20,415 nt of DNA from a virus. Where the stretch lies: IMG/VR virus record IMGVR_UViG_3300035698_002706, positions 1 through 20,415 of that record; one strand, 5' to 3'. The notes under the pieces are model-generated. The model saw nothing but the letters and a program-made list of their open reading frames with translations. It did no database searches and was not told the DNA's origin. A program made the translations under genes and the position numbers. Below are positions 8,759 through 20,415 of this stretch, piece by piece; the stretch's first letter is position 1, and the number at the start of each line of letters is the position of its first letter.

Positions 8759-9313
8759 ATGAAATTCATCAAGTGCGCCCTTGCGGCGCTGTTCCTGCTG
8801 GCCGGTGCCGGATTTTTGTTCGCTCAGTCAGGTACCGAAAGCCGTTGGCAAAACAGCATCATGAGCGTGTTGCAGTTGAAGTTGGGCGGAACGTTGCTCA
8901 CTTCCTCGGCCGCGGAACTCAATCTGACGGACAATATGTCGGCTGCGGTCAATGTCGGCCTGGCCGCTTCGGTGACGACCGACGGCATGGACATCACCCT
9001 TACGGTTCAGGACGCCGCCGGCAGTACGATCGCATCCACGGCCACAATCCTGGTTTGGATCAGCGAGGCGGCCACCTGTGCCGGCCTCACAGCAGATACC
9101 TATTCCGGGGACGTCACAATCGTTTCCGGTGTGGAGGTGGCCGAGCATACGGCCAAAAAGGCCTTCCTTGTCCAAACCGCCGCCACAGGCATTGCAACCA
9201 TGCTTGCCGTGGCGTCCGCGAACCCGGCTGATCAATATGTCTGCGCCCAGGTTTACGGTGATGGCGGTGTGAGCGTATCGGCTGTTTCCGGAACGAATTG
9301 GGAAGGTGCCTGA
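8759..9313 (+). CDS. Virion-like beta-rich protein with an N-terminal signal peptide, 184 aa
   Basis: ATG 8759 is preferred over an upstream in-frame start at 8702 because AAGGAG (8746-8751) sits seven bases before it and because it exposes a clean Sec signal peptide: a basic start MKFIK, a hydrophobic core about residues 6-20, and a cleavage-like site after FAQS or near it. The mature part has SSAAELNLTDN, a phrase common in phage fibre proteins, and then beta-rich repeats such as TTDGMDITLTVQDAAG and ILVWISEAATCAGL, ending in a Gly/Val-rich stretch. This resembles small beta modules found in phage fibres or head-surface proteins. A signal peptide is odd for a virion subunit, which normally assembles in the cytoplasm. 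It may be an exported phage protein, or the hydrophobic start may be used as an anchor. The function is unproven. Confidence 0.7.
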   Translation: MKFIKCALAALFLLAGAGFLFAQSGTESRWQNSIMSVLQLKLGGTLLTSSAAELNLTDNMSAAVNVGLAASVTTDGMDITLTVQDAAGSTIASTATILVWISEAATCAGLTADTYSGDVTIVSGVEVAEHTAKKAFLVQTAATGIATMLAVASANPADQYVCAQVYGDGGVSVSAVSGTNWEGA

Positions 9314-9384: not shown

Positions 9385-10275
9385 ATGTCCATTCTTTGCA
9401 TCTATCACGGTAATTGCGCCGACGGTTTCACGGCCGCATGGGTTGTCCGAAATGTCTTCGGTGACAAGGTTGAATTCCATGCCGGTGTTCACCAAAACCG
9501 GCCGCCCGATGTTGCTGGTCGCCACGTCCTGATTGTGGATTTCTCGTACAAACGCCATGTCCTAGCGGAGATGGCACAATCGGCCGCGAGCATCGTTATT
9601 CTGGACCACCACAAGTCGGCTCGGAACGATCTGATCGGGCTGGATCAGCCTGTGGCGTTCGACCGTTGGCGCGACGACAAGTATGCGGTTATTGGTGCCC
9701 TTCATGCATTGTTTGACATGGACCGATCAGGTGCGCAGATCGCGTGGGATTACTTCCACCCAGGAGATCCGCGTCCTGATCTTGTCAATTATGTTGGCGA
9801 TCGGGATCTGTGGCGGTTCGAAAAACCGATGTCGCGCGAAGTGAACGCCTACATCTTCGCCCACGAATACGGTTTCGACAATTGGGACAATCTCCACGCA
9901 CTGCTGTCCGGTGACAAGGGCGTAAGGCACGTCGGCAATCTTGGTAATGCGATCGAGAAAAAGCATCACAAGGATGTGGCCGAATTGGTCGGTGTTTTGC
10001 AACGGCGGGTGAACATCGGCGGCCATGACGTACCGGTTGCGAATCTCCCTTACACGCTGACGAGCGATGCCGGCCACCGGATGGCCCAAGGCGAGCCTTT
10101 TGCTGCTTGTTATTGGGATACGCCCGAAGGCCGCGTTTTCTCGCTCCGTTCTTCTGCAAACGGTCTCGATGTGAGCGCAATTGCGGCGGATTACGGTGGC
10201 GGTGGGCACGACAACGCAGCCGGTTTCCGCATGCCGATCGGCTGGGAAGGCGATGTCTCCACCACAGCCCCGTGA
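9385..10275 (+). CDS. DHH/DHHA1-family phosphoesterase
   Basis: ATG 9385 (MSILCIYHGNCADGFTAAW) is chosen because it opens directly at motif I and has GGAG seven bases upstream; an in-frame start at 9298 would add an unrelated tail. The 296-aa product shows the DHH motifs in order: His8 and Asp13 in YHGNCADGFTAA, Asp52 in LIVDFS, Asp74-His75-His76 in VILDHHKSA, and Asp139 in NYVGDRDLW. A C-terminal DHHA1 substrate-binding motif GGGGHDNAAG lies at 271-280. All metal ligands appear intact, so it should be an active Mn-dependent phosphoesterase. Relatives (RecJ, NrnA, GdpP) cut short oligonucleotides or cyclic dinucleotides. The length fits the stand-alone NrnA-type class. An enzyme amid structural genes is unusual; nucleotide salvage or removal of a defence signal are possible jobs, both inference. 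Confidence 0.88.
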   Translation: MSILCIYHGNCADGFTAAWVVRNVFGDKVEFHAGVHQNRPPDVAGRHVLIVDFSYKRHVLAEMAQSAASIVILDHHKSARNDLIGLDQPVAFDRWRDDKYAVIGALHALFDMDRSGAQIAWDYFHPGDPRPDLVNYVGDRDLWRFEKPMSREVNAYIFAHEYGFDNWDNLHALLSGDKGVRHVGNLGNAIEKKHHKDVAELVGVLQRRVNIGGHDVPVANLPYTLTSDAGHRMAQGEPFAACYWDTPEGRVFSLRSSANGLDVSAIAADYGGGGHDNAAGFRMPIGWEGDVSTTAP

Positions 10276-14124: not shown

Positions 14125-15978
14125 ATGGCTCTTCTCGACGGTTTGTTTAACCGACAACAGCCCGCTACGGCACCCGTCGCCGGCCTGCTGGCTCCGCAGA
14201 AAAGCGGGCTATTCGGCATTTCCAGTCCGACGCTTATGGCTCTCGGTGCCGGCATCGCGAGCGGCGATGGCATTGGTGACGGGATCGGCAAGGGTTTGGC
14301 GCTGGCATCGCAGACAAAGCAGCGTGAGACGGACAGGGAGGCCTCTTTGGCACCGTTGCGAGCCAATTACGCGGCCCTGGTCCAAAGCGGCATGAAGCCT
14401 CAGGAAGCACTCCTGCAGGTCACATCACCGGGTACAGCGAAAGCGCTGGACGACCGTAAGCGCAAATCCGAATGGCAGCAATTCCTTCTTGGTAAGCCAT
14501 CTGCTGCGCCGGGCACCGATTTCGCTGCAAACCTTCGTGCAGCCGAAAGCGGTGGGGACGACACCGCGAAAAACCCAAATTCCAGTGCAACGGGTCGGTT
14601 CCAGTTCACCGACGGCACATGGGCAGGGTTGCAAAAGAACCATCCTCAGCTCGGTTTGACTGATGACGGCCGTACAGACCCAGCGCAACAGGAAAAGGCG
14701 TTGGCTGCTCTGACGGCGGAGAACGCCACGACACTCAAGAATGCGGGCATCCCGGCGACAGCTGCGAACCTGCATGGTGCGCACTTCCTCGGCGGGCCGA
14801 CAGCGGCCAAGGTCTTGGCAGCGCCGGACGATGCGCTGATCTCGTCCTTTGTCGGCGCCGATGCAATCACGGCAAATCCGTTTCTGCAAGGCATGAACGT
14901 CGGCGATTTCAAGAACTGGACTGCCGGCAAACAAGGTGCACAACCCGTCCAGGTCGCCCAGGCTCCGACAGGCGACATACGCGACGGGTTGACGAACCGG
15001 CAAAAGACGATCGCTGCAAGATTAGAACCCGAAAAGGGTCTGGCGCTCATCATGGATTTCCAGGCGGAGAACGCGGCCAAGGCCAAAACGGAAGCGGAAA
15101 AGGCGAAGGCCAATGGGGCCATGCGGACGCTCTTGATCAATCAGGGTGTTGATGAAGGGCAGGCAGACACCATGATCAACGCTGGCATCGCCGGGGATAT
15201 GGTCAAAGCCGGGATGAAGCCGGAAAAACTGCCTGCGCCTGTGCAAGAATACCTTTTTGCGGTTTCGAAAGGATTCCCTGGCTCGATCCTGGAATACAAG
15301 CAGGCAAGTAGGGGCAAGGGCCTATCCATCAAAACGAACCCGGACGGAACGATGGAACTCGTTCAAGGTGGATCGCTGTCAGATGCGCAACAGCCAACCA
15401 CGAAGACAACGAGCGATCTGCAAAAGAGTTTGGTTTCAGCGGAGGAAACGCTGGCACTCGTCAAGGATTTGAAAGAGGGCTTCAAGACCGAGTATTTCAC
15501 TTATGCGGGCGCTGCTAAAGCCGGGGCCGCGCGTGTCGCTGACAATACCCAAGGCATCCCGATCGTTGAAGACGCAACCCGGTATCTGGCTGACAAGGTT
15601 GGCGGTGATGAGAAGTTCCTTGCTGAACGCCGCGCCTATCTTGAGCAGGTCGCCCAGAGCTTCAATGCCTACCGCAAGGAAATCACCGGGGCAGCGGCGG
15701 CGGTCCAAGAGCTTGAGGACCTGAAAAAGGCAACACTGAACGCTGATCTTGGCCCCGCTGAATTCAAGGCATCTCTGGAGCTGCTGGAAAAGAAGGTGAA
15801 GCGAAGCCGTGCCATCAAACGCAAGTTGCTGCGAGAAGGTATCAGCGTCGGCGACCCAAGATTTGGGCCGCGTTTCGATCAGGAGTATTTCGCTCAAGGT
15901 GATGGCCAGCAGGCTTCAGCGGCACCATTCGGTAATGATGACATCATGAAGGAACTCCAGCGCAGGGGTGGGGAATAA
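14125..15978 (+). CDS. Internal virion protein with lytic transglycosylase domain
   Basis: The 617-aa protein carries a muramidase/SLT-like domain at about residues 131-225: FAANLRAAESGGDDTAKNPN with the likely catalytic Glu141, then SSATGRFQFTDGTWAGLQKN, the 'A.GryQF...TW' signature, and ANLHGAHFLGGPTAAKVLAA. This domain cuts glycan strands so the ejection apparatus can cross the cell wall, as in the T7 gp16 class. The first 60 residues are Gly/Ala-rich (LGAGIASGDGIGDGIGKGLA) and resemble membrane-seeking starts. After about residue 300 the protein is mainly alpha-helical with coiled-coil stretches near 300-330 and 500-560. AAGGAA eight bases upstream supports ATG 14125. It shares one base with the next gene's start. 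The domain is virion-borne and not an obvious free endolysin. Confidence 0.83.
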   Translation: MALLDGLFNRQQPATAPVAGLLAPQKSGLFGISSPTLMALGAGIASGDGIGDGIGKGLALASQTKQRETDREASLAPLRANYAALVQSGMKPQEALLQVTSPGTAKALDDRKRKSEWQQFLLGKPSAAPGTDFAANLRAAESGGDDTAKNPNSSATGRFQFTDGTWAGLQKNHPQLGLTDDGRTDPAQQEKALAALTAENATTLKNAGIPATAANLHGAHFLGGPTAAKVLAAPDDALISSFVGADAITANPFLQGMNVGDFKNWTAGKQGAQPVQVAQAPTGDIRDGLTNRQKTIAARLEPEKGLALIMDFQAENAAKAKTEAEKAKANGAMRTLLINQGVDEGQADTMINAGIAGDMVKAGMKPEKLPAPVQEYLFAVSKGFPGSILEYKQASRGKGLSIKTNPDGTMELVQGGSLSDAQQPTTKTTSDLQKSLVSAEETLALVKDLKEGFKTEYFTYAGAAKAGAARVADNTQGIPIVEDATRYLADKVGGDEKFLAERRAYLEQVAQSFNAYRKEITGAAAAVQELEDLKKATLNADLGPAEFKASLELLEKKVKRSRAIKRKLLREGISVGDPRFGPRFDQEYFAQGDGQQASAAPFGNDDIMKELQRRGGE

Positions 15979-18128
15979 TGGACATCACGAAAGTTCCTAC
16001 TGACCAACTGAAGGCGATGCTGGCAAAGATGGATGCCGTTGATGCCGCCCCGCCAACCGACATCACCCAGGTGCCGACCAGCGAACTCCAGGCGATGCTG
16101 GAAACCCAAGCCGCCAATGGGCGTGTAGCGCGTGGATTCGCGGCTGTCGACCAGGCGGCGCCGACCAGTCCTGAATTGCAGGAGGAGACCGAAGGCCGTG
16201 CGCAAAGCGGCGATCCGCGGTTCAACTCGAACCTGCTCGATGCGGGTGCGACGGGCATAGCCCAGGGCCTGACATTCGGGACATCGGATGAAATACAGGC
16301 GGCATTGCAATCTGGGTTCGGTCTACTGTCCGATTTCGACGAAACCCATGAGAACGTCTCTGCCGAAATGGAAGCGGCGCGGCGGAAGTATCCGTGGTTG
16401 TTCCTTGGCGGTGAACTGGCAGGCGGCGTTACCAATGCGGCTGGGCTCATCAAGTCGGGGCTTTCAGCTTCGGCAAGGTTCGCAGGTAGTAAGATCGGGA
16501 CGCGCATCGGCGCTGCCGCAGGGGATGGCGCTCTTGCTGGGGCAGCTTTCGGTGCGGGGTCCGGTGACGGTCTCCAAGACCGATGGGATCGTGCCCAGAC
16601 GGGATTTGCAGTCGGCGGGCTAACTGGGCCGATTGTTGAAGCTGCCGGCAACCAGGTCGCCAAGATCTTCTCGAAAAAGGTGCCGGGCCCTGGTTCTGAA
16701 GCGGTCGCCAAAGCAGACGAATTTGGAATCCCGCTGACGCGGGGGCAGGCGACCGGTGATGTCAAACAGCAGGCGTTCGAACAGGCCGCACTTAACGAAG
16801 CGAAAGGCGAAAAGGCGGGGAAGATCATTCGTGATTTCGCTGAACGCCAGCGACAGGCCATCACACACGCCGGCGAAGATCTCGGGGATGAATTTGGTGG
16901 AGGCGATAAACTCATCGAGGCGGTCGACGATGCTGGTCGTATCGTCCGGGACTCGGTCTCTGATCTCGCTGCAACGCTCAAGGATGACGGGAACCAGGCT
17001 TACAACGCTGTGGGAAGGCGTGACGCAACGATCGCCGCGTCTGCAGTGCGAGATTTGCCCAATCAGGTTAAAGGGGCTCTCGGGGTCACTGACGACATTC
17101 TGGACCCGTCGATCGCACCCGTTGCGACACGAGCTCAAAAGCTGATCTCCGATTTTGCCGCAAAGGCTGACGGCGATGCGGTTGGTGTCAGCATCCACGG
17201 GATGGAGCGGTTACGCCAAGGATTGAACCGCCTCAAAGCGGCGCCGGGTACCACCGATGCCATGGCGATGAAGGAAATCAAGAAAGGATTCGATACGTGG
17301 CTTGACGACACGGTCGACAATGCCCTGTTCTCAGGTGACCCGAGAGTTCTGGCTGACCTGAAAGACGCACGGGGCATATGGACTCAGTATCTCGGGATCG
17401 TCCGACCGAAAGCCAAAGATGACGCCGGCCGTGTTATCGAAAAGTTCGCGACACAAGACGTTGATGCAGTCGAAGCAGTGAACTGGATGATCGGGTCCGC
17501 GAATTTTGGAGCGTCCGGCCGTCCAGTCCGAGTGGTCAAACGCGTGAAGGAACTGTTCGGGCCTGACAGTGATCAAATCAACTCACTGCGCCAGGCTGCA
17601 TGGCTCCGGATCACTCAAGCCCCGCGCGGTGGGAACGCTCCTGGAGCCGCGGAGGTCGCAAACCGGGTCAATGATTTTGTGCTGAGGAAGGGCAAGCCAC
17701 TTGCGAACGAACTCTTTGCTCCAAAAGAGCGAACGCAAATGCTCAGGTATGTGAGTGCATTGAGGCAGACCATTCCAAAGCCGGAGGCCACAAATCCTTC
17801 AAAATCCGGGTTTGCTGCATCACGGCTGCTGGCAAGTGTCGGCGACAATATCAGCGCCCTCCTGGGGTATTCGGCCGGCGGGGTGGATGCTGGCATAGCA
17901 ACCCGCTTGGCTCTGCCCATATTCAGAAACACCCGCCACGCGTCTCAGGCCCGAACGGCGATAACAAAGCCGACGCTGCCCGCTCGGACGACTGGTGGCG
18001 GTTTGGTCGGCGGTGGGCTGGCTGGCGGCTCTGAAAAGCAGTTCGGAATGGCGCCAAGTCGATCGGCAACCGGCCCGTTGGAAATTACGATCAGGCCTAG
18101 CGATATACCAAAAAGGGCGACACGATAA
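15978..18128 (+). CDS. Large internal virion / DNA-ejection protein, 716 aa
   Basis: The start overlaps the transglycosylase gene stop (TAATG). Residues 2-15 and 28-41 repeat one motif (DITKVPTDQLKAML and DITQVPTSELQAML), joined by a short Ala/Pro linker. Residues about 85-145 contain GIAQGLTFGTSDEIQAALQS and a YPWLFLGGELAGG segment that I recall from large podovirus internal proteins. A Gly/Ala-rich hydrophobic stretch (131-200) could insert into membranes. From about 230 to 640 the protein is mostly helical, with many charged residues, and the C-terminus is Gly- and Thr-rich, then basic. It is the last gene of the + strand ejection block, and its stop abuts the stop of an opposite-strand gene with no base between. 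It probably forms part of the periplasmic channel with the two preceding proteins. Confidence 0.75.
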   Translation: MDITKVPTDQLKAMLAKMDAVDAAPPTDITQVPTSELQAMLETQAANGRVARGFAAVDQAAPTSPELQEETEGRAQSGDPRFNSNLLDAGATGIAQGLTFGTSDEIQAALQSGFGLLSDFDETHENVSAEMEAARRKYPWLFLGGELAGGVTNAAGLIKSGLSASARFAGSKIGTRIGAAAGDGALAGAAFGAGSGDGLQDRWDRAQTGFAVGGLTGPIVEAAGNQVAKIFSKKVPGPGSEAVAKADEFGIPLTRGQATGDVKQQAFEQAALNEAKGEKAGKIIRDFAERQRQAITHAGEDLGDEFGGGDKLIEAVDDAGRIVRDSVSDLAATLKDDGNQAYNAVGRRDATIAASAVRDLPNQVKGALGVTDDILDPSIAPVATRAQKLISDFAAKADGDAVGVSIHGMERLRQGLNRLKAAPGTTDAMAMKEIKKGFDTWLDDTVDNALFSGDPRVLADLKDARGIWTQYLGIVRPKAKDDAGRVIEKFATQDVDAVEAVNWMIGSANFGASGRPVRVVKRVKELFGPDSDQINSLRQAAWLRITQAPRGGNAPGAAEVANRVNDFVLRKGKPLANELFAPKERTQMLRYVSALRQTIPKPEATNPSKSGFAASRLLASVGDNISALLGYSAGGVDAGIATRLALPIFRNTRHASQARTAITKPTLPARTTGGGLVGGGLAGGSEKQFGMAPSRSATGPLEITIRPSDIPKRATR

Positions 18129-18341
18129 TTATGCCGGATCGATGAACATCCAGGCGGATCCGAGGAGCATTACCAATGGGGCAAAGAAGCAGAAGTTCGC
18201 TACGTACTTCACCCCGGCGTCCTTCCATCCGTCGCGTTCGGCCATGTGCTTTGCAATCAGACTCCACGCGAAGAGGATCGCCAGAATGTTCGCCAGGAGG
18301 ATAGGGGCAGCTTCACGGATGATTTCGGTCATAAGCAACAC
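18129..18341 (-). CDS. Small two-helix membrane protein (unknown; holin possible)
   Basis: The - strand frame gives 70 residues from GTG 18341, or 67 from ATG 18332 (MTEIIREAAPILLANILAIL); neither has a strong ribosome site. Two hydrophobic helices are clear: about 10-29 (with FAWSLIA at its end) and about 50-66 (FCFFAPLVMLLGSAWMF). Between them is a charged loop (KHMAERDGWKDAGVKY). The size and the two membrane segments suit a class II-type holin, and no other lysis gene is visible here, but many small phage membrane proteins look alike. It is convergent with the long + strand block, stop to stop, and is the last of three genes in the same direction. Superinfection exclusion or envelope modification are alternatives. 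Confidence 0.6.
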   Translation of the reverse strand: MLLMTEIIREAAPILLANILAILFAWSLIAKHMAERDGWKDAGVKYVANFCFFAPLVMLLGSAWMFIDPA

Positions 18342-18374
18342 ATAACCACGAAGGGAGAAATTTCCAAGCGGGGA

Positions 18375-18812
18375 CTATTTGACGAGACAATGACCATAAT
18401 ACTGGGACGGGACACCAACTGAACCTATGCCGGTTGCGCGAGAATGAACGGAAGGGTTGGAGCCCAGTGTTTTGCCAAAGAGCGTTGTTACTTGAACGGT
18501 CGAATTGCCAGTGACCTCTATGAAAGTGATCTTGTCGGCGCCCCACACCACATGAACTTTTGCGGCACCCTGGTTTGCGTGGAGGAAGGCGGTGCTTTCG
18601 CCAGGCTCTACGACGAATGAGAGCTTGAATTCAGAATCCTGGTGCAATTCCATCGCAATCGTAGGGCTGGATTTCTCCGTCTTGGCGGTAAGCGTGGCAC
18701 TCGCACTTTTTGGGTACTCGCAAGTGATCGCTATCGGGTTGGCTGAAGCTTGGGCCAACCCCAGTGCAAAAGTCGCAGTTGCCCAGGCCACGAGTTTGAA
18801 AAAATCGTCCAT
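18375..18812 (-). CDS. Secreted protein with Sec signal peptide, 145 aa (accessory/moron candidate)
   Basis: Start ATG at 18812 (MDDFFKLVAWATATFALGLA) gives a clear signal peptide: a hydrophobic core about residues 7-20 and a cleavage site after QASA (residue 24). The mature chain begins NPIAITCEYP and is beta-rich (EFKLSFVVEPGESTAFLHAN, then VHVVWGADKITFIEV). It has only two cysteines, Cys31 and Cys142, near both ends, which could form one disulfide in the periplasm. The frame extends to 18908, but that extension lacks a signal peptide and the promoter below would lie inside it. The promoter sits so close to this ATG that the mRNA would be leaderless. I do not recognise the family. Opposite strand, own promoter and export signal are the profile of a lysogenic-conversion or superinfection-exclusion gene, which is inference. 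Confidence 0.68.
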   Translation of the reverse strand: MDDFFKLVAWATATFALGLAQASANPIAITCEYPKSASATLTAKTEKSSPTIAMELHQDSEFKLSFVVEPGESTAFLHANQGAAKVHVVWGADKITFIEVTGNSTVQVTTLFGKTLGSNPSVHSRATGIGSVGVPSQYYGHCLVK

Positions 18813-18818
18813 CGGCGG

Positions 18819-18847
18819 AATATAGCCACCCAGCAGGCAAACGCCAA
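18819..18847 (-). promoter_or_regulatory. Sigma70-like promoter for the secreted protein gene
   Basis: Read on the - strand, TTGGCG (18847-18842, four of six with TTGACA) is followed by a 17-base spacer and TATATT (18824-18819, five of six with TATAAT). Initiation about seven bases past the -10 would fall at 18812, the first base of the ATG. Spacing is ideal and no Shine-Dalgarno fits before that ATG, so a leaderless transcript is expected. It was found by eye. Confidence 0.5.
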
Positions 18848-18864
18848 GGGGTGCGGCATGAACG

Positions 18865-19053
18865 TCAGTGAGAACGAGGAGGAGCAACTTTTGCCTTGGC
18901 CGCCTCATCTATTAATTGTTGGCCGAGTTCCGTTGCGTGATCGGGGGCAATCGCAAATCCGATCTCAGTTGGTAGATTGTGATCCATTATCAGAGCCACT
19001 TTTTCGCCGTCTGCGGTCGGGAGTGTACCAACATCGTACTTCTCCGCAGTCAC
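18865..19053 (-). CDS. Small conserved-looking hypothetical protein, 62 aa
   Basis: GTG start at 19053; in the same frame a stop lies at 19099-19101, and no better start is available. The product reads like a genuine domain: YDVGTLPTADGEKVALIMDH is strand-rich, then LPTEIGFAIAPDHATELGQQ and LIDEAAKA form a helix. This matches the shape 'v.l.l....g.....l....a..La..LleaA..a', which I recall from small uncharacterised proteins in proteobacteria and their phages. No membrane segment or signal is present. It lies upstream of the secreted protein gene in the same direction, 52 bases away, but that gene seems to have its own promoter. Function unknown. Start uncertain because no clear ribosome site was seen. 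Confidence 0.5.
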   Translation of the reverse strand: MTAEKYDVGTLPTADGEKVALIMDHNLPTEIGFAIAPDHATELGQQLIDEAAKAKVAPPRSH

Positions 19054-19100: not shown

Positions 19101-19445
19101 ATGTCGGCGATGTTGAACCTGCTTGGAACTAGAACGGCTTGGGAGTTGTTTTATGTGCCAACACTTCTTGAGATGAGAACATCACCGTTGGGGCGGCCTA
19201 ATTTCGAGGTGCAGGGCATTGCGGAAGCGAAAGGAAATTCGCTTCTGACCAGTCTGGAGCACATGACTGGTGGAAAGGTTGGCTACCTTTATGACCACTA
19301 CCTACCGGATCAGAAGCCCGACCCGCTTTCGCTTGTGGTGTCCGAAGAAGACTCGCACCCAAACCCTAAAGGAAATCGAGTCTTGGTTGATGCGATCGTC
19401 GACGCGCTGAAAGACGCCCCGCCAACGAAACACTTGTTCGAGTAA
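19101..19445 (+). pseudogene. C-terminal fragment resembling an SGNH/GDSL hydrolase
   Basis: From ATG 19101 the + frame gives 114 residues. Its end, VVSEEDSHPNPKGNRVLVDA followed by IVDALK, closely matches block V of SGNH hydrolases, where Asp and His of the catalytic triad sit before 'PN..G......a'. The N-terminal GDS block with the catalytic serine is missing; the frame is open further left to 18750, but that part mirrors the opposite-strand genes and has no SGNH features. GAAGGA lies three bases before the ATG, so a short product may still be made. The simplest reading is the stump of an esterase or lipase-like gene, perhaps a former fibre-associated deacetylase, cut when the opposite-strand cassette arrived or by deletion. 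A complete short protein of unknown role cannot be excluded. Confidence 0.5.
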
Positions 19446-19485: not shown

Positions 19486-19509
19486 AAGCGGCTCCAGGGC
19501 CGCTTTTTT
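19486..19509 (+). terminator. Intrinsic (Rho-independent) terminator
   Basis: AAGCGGC (19486-19492) pairs with GCCGCTT (19499-19505), seven pairs around a six-base loop, followed by a run of six T (19504-19509). This is a textbook intrinsic terminator on the + strand, 40 bases after the SGNH-like frame ends and 21 bases before the tail-collar gene ATG. The complementary strand lacks a T-run, so it works one way. Confidence 0.8.
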
Positions 19510-19530: not shown

Positions 19531-20415
19531 ATGAAGAACTTCCGGATGCCTTTCGGGGCACTGGTCGCGATGGCGCTTGTCTTGGTGACAGCGCCGGCGG
19601 CCGCCACACTTTGGAAATGGTCCACAACCGCGGCATCGAACGCAACTTCGGATTCCACAATCAATTGGGCGGAAGGACAGTCGCCGGGCTCTGTAAATGA
19701 CTCCGCGCGTGCGATGATGGCGGCCGTCGCCAAATACCGTGATGATGTCGCCAATGCGGGCACGACAGGCGGCACGGCATCCGCCTACACCCTGACGACG
19801 ACGCAATCACTCACGGTGTTGACGAACAAGTTTTCGGTCGCATTGACCGCCCACGCAGCGAACAACGCGGGTGCCACGATCGCAGTTGACGGGCTCACCG
19901 CCAAGCCCCTGGCAACGACATCGGGCGACGCGATCGGCGCCGGTGTTCTTGCACAGGGTGGCCGGTACACCATCAGTTACGATTCCGGTGAGGACGAGTG
20001 GGTCGTCCACTCGATCCAGGCGGACCCGTCGCCGTTCCCGGTAGGCGCCTATCTGGACTATTCCGGGTCGTCGGCGCCGTCTGGCTGGCTTCTGGCCAAT
20101 GGCCAGGCCGTTTCTCGCACGACCTATGCGGACCTGTTCACGCTTCTAAGCACGACTTACGGCGTCGGTGATGGTTCCACCACGTTCAATCTTCCAGACT
20201 TCCGCGGCCGGGTTGCTGCTGGATCTGACACGATGGGAACGACGGCGGCGAGTCGCCTAACTGCTACCACGATGAGCGGCAACGGGCAGGGTTTGGGTGA
20301 AACGGGCGGCACGGAAACGCACGCTCTTATCACGGCAGAACTCGCTGCTCATACGCATAGCGGGTCGACTCTTACGGCATCCTCTGCGGGAGCGCACACC
20401 CACGGGACAACGGAA
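19531..20415 (+). CDS. Tail-collar domain fibre protein with N-terminal signal peptide (3' end beyond window)
   Basis: ATG 19531 has GGAG (19521-19524) six bases upstream. The frame stays open to the window edge (295 residues visible). It begins MKNFRMPFGALVAMALVLVT, a Sec-type signal peptide with a likely cut after APAAA (about residue 25). Next comes INWAEGQSPGSVNDSARAMM, then AAVAKYRDD, a segment I recall from phage fibre starts. A beta-rich shaft follows, then a phage tail-collar domain: GAYLDYSGSSAPSGWLLANG, then YADLFTLLSTTYGVGDGSTT and FNLPDFRGRV. The end is His/Thr-rich (HTHSGSTLT, AHTHGTTE), as in metal-binding fibre tips. It should be a receptor-binding tail fibre or knob. The signal peptide is odd for a virion protein. 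The gene lies just after a terminator, so its transcription needs read-through or an unseen promoter. Confidence 0.88.
   Translation, partial: MKNFRMPFGALVAMALVLVTAPAAATLWKWSTTAASNATSDSTINWAEGQSPGSVNDSARAMMAAVAKYRDDVANAGTTGGTASAYTLTTTQSLTVLTNKFSVALTAHAANNAGATIAVDGLTAKPLATTSGDAIGAGVLAQGGRYTISYDSGEDEWVVHSIQADPSPFPVGAYLDYSGSSAPSGWLLANGQAVSRTTYADLFTLLSTTYGVGDGSTTFNLPDFRGRVAAGSDTMGTTAASRLTATTMSGNGQGLGETGGTETHALITAELAAHTHSGSTLTASSAGAHTHGTTE

What the first reader, a model, noticed from the sequence alone, without database searches (positions are those of the whole stretch)
18129..19053. Opposite-strand accessory cassette between the ejection genes and the tail fibre gene
Three small genes on the - strand interrupt an otherwise single-direction late region: a two-helix membrane protein, an exported protein with one possible disulfide, and a short conserved-looking protein. 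Envelope-directed products, opposite direction and a dedicated promoter are typical of moron genes active in lysogens. Likely roles are superinfection exclusion, receptor masking or host fitness. None of the proteins matches a family I recognise, so this is the strongest candidate for an undescribed system here.
Basis: partly seen in the sequence, partly recalled or inferred. Interest (0 to 1): 0.65.

Follow-up and report, generated by a model that had tools for sequence, protein, structure and literature searches.

The report
SieA-like locus beside phage ejection gene
A short stretch of backwards-facing genes in a P22-type phage sits where phage P22 keeps its gene for locking out rival phages, and many related phages carry different small membrane-protein genes at that same spot, so it probably protects infected bacteria from further infection.

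Summary
The minus-strand block is real. TM70 (18129-18341), a two-helix membrane protein, has gene-like codon usage, and its stop abuts the ejection gene's stop. Sec145 (18375-18812), an exported two-cysteine protein, has relatives in two alphaproteobacterial genomes. The third ORF, p62 (18865-19053), is doubtful. A plus-strand ORF (19101-19445) is apparently the C-terminal remnant of a 466-aa protein, and a terminator-like hairpin precedes the collar gene.

Relatives with both flanking genes intact show the site is variable. It is empty in several phages. In others it holds one small minus-strand membrane protein, tail-to-tail with the last ejection gene, from at least four unrelated families. 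Two of these families, searched separately, sat there in 30 of 30 viral contigs. One lies unannotated in the GenBank record of Bradyrhizobium phage ppBeUSDA76-2. P22 has the same layout: gene 16 (+), sieA (-), other immunity genes, terminator, tailspike gene. SieA blocks DNA injection through the ejection proteins.

Best reading: a lysogen-expressed envelope cassette, with TM70 a SieA-type (not SieA-homologous) exclusion protein and sec145 an accessory. Function and expression are inferred. New variant of a known kind.

The parts
15978..18128 (+). last ejection-type structural gene (716 aa), 5' flank of the site
   Evidence: phrog_5880 3.9e-12; homologues in L016, L098-L101 and L005
18129..18341 (-). 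TM70: two-helix membrane protein, proposed SieA-type exclusion protein; its stop abuts the ejection gene's stop (alternative start ATG 18332)
   Evidence: codon score 0.321 vs antisense maximum 0.286; 2-TM ORF in 8/1000 shuffles; small minus-strand TM genes at the same site in relatives
18375..18812 (-). sec145: exported all-beta protein with two cysteines (a 177-aa form would start at 18908)
   Evidence: relatives in G290 and G024 with motif VHS...P.Q..G.C; low-confidence model, signal helix plus 8 strands
18819..18847 (-). sigma-70-like promoter candidate (TTGGCG-17-TATATT) placed for near-leaderless sec145-TM70 transcription
   Evidence: frequency at chance level
18865..19053 (-). p62: doubtful ORF, no relatives
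   Evidence: codon score 0.02; no match
19101..19445 (+). 114-aa ORF, probable remnant: C-terminal part of a 466-aa protein
   Evidence: 34% over 98 aa to residues 350-447 of a 466-aa protein in G227, E 6e-10
19486..19505 (+). terminator-like hairpin followed by a T run, upstream of the collar gene
   Evidence: count not above chance for the region
19531..20415 (+). tail collar / fibre gene, 3' flank of the site (cut by the contig end)
   Evidence: PF07484 4.8e-22; homologues in relatives

Best explanation
The block is a lysogenic-conversion cassette at the position where P22-type phages carry sieA. Proposed mechanism: sec145 and TM70 are transcribed leftward, opposite to the late operon, from their own promoter in the prophage. 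TM70 inserts in the inner membrane. There it interferes with assembly or function of the DNA-injection conduit that the ejection proteins of a related incoming phage form across the envelope, so that phage's DNA does not enter. Sec145 is exported to the periplasm and helps or adds a second envelope effect. p62 and the plus-strand remnant are leftovers of the exchanges that load this site. Shown here: anatomy, coding signal, variable occupancy, recurrent convergent small membrane-protein genes, P22 synteny. Inferred: expression, localisation, exclusion, and the role of sec145.
For: (1) P22 layout: gene 16 (+), then sieA (-) 22 bp later with its own promoter, mnt (-), arc and ant (+), terminator, gene 9. 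The window has ejection gene (+), TM70 and sec145 (-), plus-strand ORF, terminator-like hairpin, collar gene. [quoted passage not shown] escape mutations lie in ejection-protein genes 16 and 20; every SieA examined lies between the homologues of genes 16 and 9, in types only about 25% identical (PMC10883804). (3) Relatives of the window phage carry a minus-strand 1-2 TM gene convergent with the ejection gene: family A in 7 loci, B in 8, C in 4, D in 2 of the first set, plus singletons L016, L081 and L103. New searches with A and B gave 30 further viral contigs, 30 of 30 convergent with a large opposite ORF, almost all matching known ejection proteins. Other junctions: 9 of 403, several of these being minus-strand genes beyond the collar gene, three confirmed as acyltransferases. 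(4) Codon-position differences in the minus frame: A 227/171/335, B 205/117/357, C 114/81/179 at positions 1/2/3. (5) The closest relative with the site read (L016) has an integrase and a 2-TM plus lipobox-type pair there. (6) Local G+C is 52-55% against 57.9% overall.
Against: TM70 has no sequence relative and does not match SieA (hmmsearch E 0.28). It is 70 aa with two helices against 164 aa and three predicted helices. No expression or exclusion data exist. No integrase was found in the window or its 5-kb upstream extension, so temperate lifestyle is not shown for this phage. The promoter site is at chance level. The families may not share one function.
Confidence: 0.5

Rival explanations
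1. General lysogenic-conversion morons: the products alter the envelope or benefit the host (receptor masking, fitness) without blocking ejection proteins.
For: Sec145 belongs to a family with a member between branched-chain amino-acid transporter genes in an alphaproteobacterial genome. Some relatives carry minus-strand Acyl_transf_3 genes just beyond the collar gene, typical of surface modification.
Against: Does not explain why unrelated small TM proteins repeatedly sit tail-to-tail with the ejection gene or the P22 sieA synteny.
Confidence: 0.25
2. Lysis-related genes: TM70 is a small two-helix holin, pinholin or antiholin, and the exported partner a spanin-like or endolysin-modulating protein.
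For: Two-helix proteins of about 60-70 aa resemble class II holins in size; a virion-type lysozyme gene often follows on the plus strand.
Against: Wrong strand for late lysis genes; separate lysozyme genes lie on the plus strand beyond the collar gene in relatives; no PHROG, Pfam or NCBIfam lysis match; family B has one C-terminal helix.
Confidence: 0.08
3. Counter-defence or early host-takeover proteins expressed from a leftward promoter during infection rather than in the prophage.
For: Variable small-gene content is typical of counter-defence loci; no integrase seen in the window or its extension.
Against: The closest relative is temperate and many carriers are in Bradyrhizobium genomes; no PADLOC match.
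Confidence: 0.1
4. Chance ORFs in intergenic DNA.
For: p62 has no support; ORF length of sec145 alone is not unusual.
Against: TM70 codon score and 0.8% shuffle rate; sec145 homologues; conserved genes at the same site in relatives.
Confidence: 0.05

Closest known systems
P22 sieA (superinfection exclusion A) and its locus between genes 16 and 9
   Same: Minus-strand membrane-protein gene tail-to-tail with the last ejection gene, followed by further accessory genes, a plus-strand terminator and the tail receptor-binding gene; P22 synteny checked in the annotated genome. Sequence-diverse proteins share the locus (PMC10883804).
   Different: No sequence similarity; two helices and 70 aa against three predicted helices and 164 aa; an exported partner is present; hosts are alphaproteobacteria or unknown rather than enterobacteria; no functional test.
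HK97 gp15, Tuc2009 and TP-J34 superinfection-exclusion membrane proteins or lipoproteins (as cited in PMC10883804)
   Same: Small membrane or lipoprotein product of a prophage proposed to block DNA injection; L016 pairs a 2-TM protein with a lipobox-type protein.
   Different: Those act on long-tailed phages through other targets; no homology found here.
Unnamed exported-protein family of sec145 (G290, G024)
   Same: N-terminal hydrophobic signal, cysteines near both ends, VHS...P.Q..G.C C-terminus.
   Different: The two relatives are in alphaproteobacterial genomes with no phage genes seen nearby; their function is unknown.

Membership tests
P22 SieA | gene on the opposite strand between homologues of gene 16 (last ejection gene) and gene 9 (tail receptor-binding gene) | tested here: met
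   window coordinates against NC_002371 annotation; equivalence of the flanking genes is by position and function, not by sequence homology to P22
P22 SieA | sequence homology to SieA types A-C | tested here: not met
   single-sequence P22 SieA profile vs TM70 E 0.28; no Pfam, NCBIfam or PHROG match. Types B and C were not compared directly.
P22 SieA | motif FxRYPxEAxxFNK near the C-terminus | tested here: not met
   absent from TM70 by reading; motif as given in PMC10883804
P22 SieA | inner-membrane protein with about three helices | tested here: inconclusive
   TM70 has two hydropathy segments; location not testable
P22 SieA | blocks DNA injection; escape through ejection-protein mutations | not testable with these tools
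   needs plating and escape-mutant experiments
Phage moron (lysogenic conversion gene) | present or absent at one site with flanking genes intact in relatives | tested here: met
   empty in L006, L012, L054, L068, L074, L095, L105; other genes in L005, L016, L098-L100 and others
Phage moron (lysogenic conversion gene) | own promoter and terminator, expressed from the prophage | tested here: inconclusive
   one promoter-like site, chance level; expression not testable
Class II holin / lysis cassette | in the late operon next to endolysin, same strand | tested here: not met
   opposite strand; plus-strand lysozyme genes elsewhere in relatives
PADLOC anti-phage defence systems | profile match to a known defence protein | tested here: not met
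   no match at E up to 1

The most novel reading that the evidence does not exclude
A P22-type phage lineage of alphaproteobacteria keeps a dedicated exclusion slot, locked tail-to-tail with the last ejection gene. Many unrelated miniature (about 50-100 aa) membrane proteins rotate through it, each matched to the ejection proteins encoded next door. It would be a set of convergent SieA analogues that define superinfection groups.
Probability: 0.4. Interest if true: 0.75.

Novelty: new variant of a known kind. Interest (0 to 1): 0.5.

Why it matters
If true, the exclusion slot known from P22 sieA is a shared architectural rule of P22-type phages far beyond enterobacteria, filled by convergent, very small proteins that current annotation misses; family A is unannotated in the GenBank record of ppBeUSDA76-2. 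It gives short, cheap-to-test candidates for how one small membrane protein can stop an ejection conduit, and a reason why exclusion gene and ejection gene are physically linked.

Tried and rejected
Direct homologue searches for TM70, sec145, the 716-aa ejection protein and the plus ORF in viral contigs found nothing usable. The one TM70 hit (L002) is a 19-residue coiled-coil-like match in a plus-strand 149-aa ORF and was rejected. Sec145 in genome contigs: nothing. Relatives were therefore reached through the nozzle protein. Hydrophobic minus ORFs that mostly overlap plus genes were distrusted, because the antisense of charged codons reads as hydrophobic; so the L003 minus ORF overlapping the ejection 3' end and the 2-TM ORFs flagged in L028 and L102 were not counted as cases. 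TM70 overlaps no plus gene. The AlphaFold model of sec145 (pLDDT 49.6) suggests a signal helix and eight strands but is too weak for a fold search, which was not run. An antisense-regulator reading was considered and set aside because homologues and codon bias point to proteins. The two genome loci without a convergent ejection ORF (L157, L158) have short flanks and were not pursued. The shared-promoter idea rests only on a consensus match. Literature searches found no description of these genes in rhizobial P22-type phages; only open-licence papers are covered.

Full report
What the window is. It is a 20,415-base linear IMG/VR fragment carrying terminase, portal, head and tail genes of a P22-type podovirus: portal phrog_156, nozzle phrog_3287, transglycosylase-type ejection protein, collar PF07484. 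Nearest named phages by portal are Rhizobium phage RHph_Y1_10, an uncultivated podovirus from Manatee Spring, Microcystis phage Mae-JY35 and Paracoccus phage KLEP18-1, at 34-40% identity. Two other IMG/VR contigs are the same phage (100% portal). One extends 5 kb upstream (a toprim-like ORF by reading, DnaB with an intein) without a visible integrase.

The observation. Three minus-strand ORFs lie at 18129-19053 between the last ejection-type gene and the collar gene. TM70 has two hydrophobic segments, codon usage like the phage's own genes and above all 40 antisense control ORFs, and its stop codon directly abuts the ejection gene's stop. A minus ORF of this kind appears in 0.8% of shuffles of the intergenic DNA. 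Sec145 is exported by its N-terminus and has relatives in two alphaproteobacterial genomes: G290 (41% over the C-terminal half, E 1.6e-4) and, through a two-row profile, G024 (E 1.7e-4), where it sits between branched-chain amino-acid transporter genes. All three share VHS...P.Q..G.C and cysteines near both ends. p62 has neither codon support nor relatives. G+C over the block is 52-55% against 57.9% for the window, as expected of acquired DNA.

The site in relatives. Using the nozzle protein as anchor I collected 80 viral loci and 11 loci in Bradyrhizobium or related genomes. Between the last ejection gene and the next plus gene (a lysozyme-type gene or the collar gene) the site is empty in several (L006, L012, L054, L068, L074, L095, L105). 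In many others it holds a small minus-strand gene with one or two hydrophobic segments, convergent with the ejection gene. These fall into at least four families by profile: A (7 loci), B (8), C (4), D (2, including Mae-JY35), plus singletons L016 (97-aa two-helix protein with a 121-aa lipobox-type protein), L081, L103 and the window's own TM70. No profile found a copy elsewhere in the held loci. At other junctions in the same loci only 9 of 403 had a two-helix minus ORF, several of them beyond the collar gene; three of those are Acyl_transf_3 genes.

Independent test. Separate collection searches with families A and B, which know nothing of the neighbours, returned 42 loci. After removing contigs already seen, 30 viral contigs remained. 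In 30 of 30 the small gene is convergent with a large opposite-strand ORF, and almost all of those ORFs match ejection proteins of the reference phages (a few contigs are near-duplicates of one another, and L140 and L148 share a contig with loci of the first set). Two of four loci from Bradyrhizobium genomes agreed; the other two have short flanks. Codon-position differences within families are highest at position 3 of the minus frame (A 227/171/335, B 205/117/357, C 114/81/179), so these are proteins. Part of each family A gene overlaps the ejection gene's 3' end, which weakens the codon test there but not in the intergenic part. The GenBank record of Bradyrhizobium phage ppBeUSDA76-2 has a family A gene (64 aa) at this site with no annotation.

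Comparison with P22. In NC_002371 the order is gene 16 (+), sieA (-) 22 bp later with its own promoter, orf59a and mnt (-), arc and ant (+), a plus-strand terminator, gene 9, then gtrC (-) for O-antigen conversion. The window matches this order in outline up to the collar gene (it has no recognisable mnt, arc or ant), and some relatives have a minus-strand acyltransferase where P22 has gtrC. The SieA study (PMC10883804) reports an inner-membrane protein, block of DNA injection, escape mutations in ejection genes 16 and 20, position between genes 16 and 9 in all cases examined, and sequence types only about 25% identical. TM70 is not a SieA by sequence, so I do not file it as a member; the claim is that it works like one.

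Mechanism and confidence. Most likely TM70 acts in the inner membrane of a lysogen on the ejection conduit of related phages, with sec145 as a periplasmic partner or separate envelope factor. The position, orientation, class of protein and turnover are shown; expression, localisation, exclusion and the partner role are inferred. Temperate lifestyle is shown for the closest relative whose site was read (integrase in the L016 record) and implied for the Bradyrhizobium prophages, but not for this fragment. Rivals are general envelope conversion, counter-defence, lysis and chance, in that order.

Verdict. The wider result, a recurrent slot for unrelated small membrane proteins beside the ejection gene, is the part worth following up.

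Noticed in passing
window 19531-19605: The collar protein starts with a signal-peptide-like stretch (MKNFRMPFGALVAMALVLVTAPAAA) that aligned relatives lack; either a different start codon is used or a virion protein carries an export signal.
   Followed up: partly
window 8759-9313: A gene in the structural region also begins with a signal-peptide-like sequence (MKFIKCALAALFLLAGAGFLFAQ); no Pfam match.
   Followed up: no
window 9385-10275: A DHH phosphoesterase gene (phrog_4771, 3.5e-104) lies within the structural gene block.
   Followed up: no
L008 900-3404: DnaB helicase of the same phage with an apparent homing-endonuclease intein inserted at the ATP-binding loop.
   Followed up: partly
L020 16392-17447, L038 11188-12330, L103 17011-18228: Minus-strand Acyl_transf_3 genes just beyond the collar gene, in the place where P22 has gtrC: probable surface-modification conversion genes.
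   Followed up: partly
L163 5128-5322 (OP596614 record 33630-33824): Unannotated 64-aa two-helix gene (family A) in Bradyrhizobium phage ppBeUSDA76-2.
   Followed up: yes
L016 15905-16270: 121-aa minus-strand protein with a lipobox-like AGC motif, beside the 2-TM gene; sub-threshold AsnC-type Pfam match probably spurious.
   Followed up: partly
L012 16488-16718: Long alternating Met-Ala repeat ORF at the contig end, probably a simple-repeat or assembly artefact.
   Followed up: no
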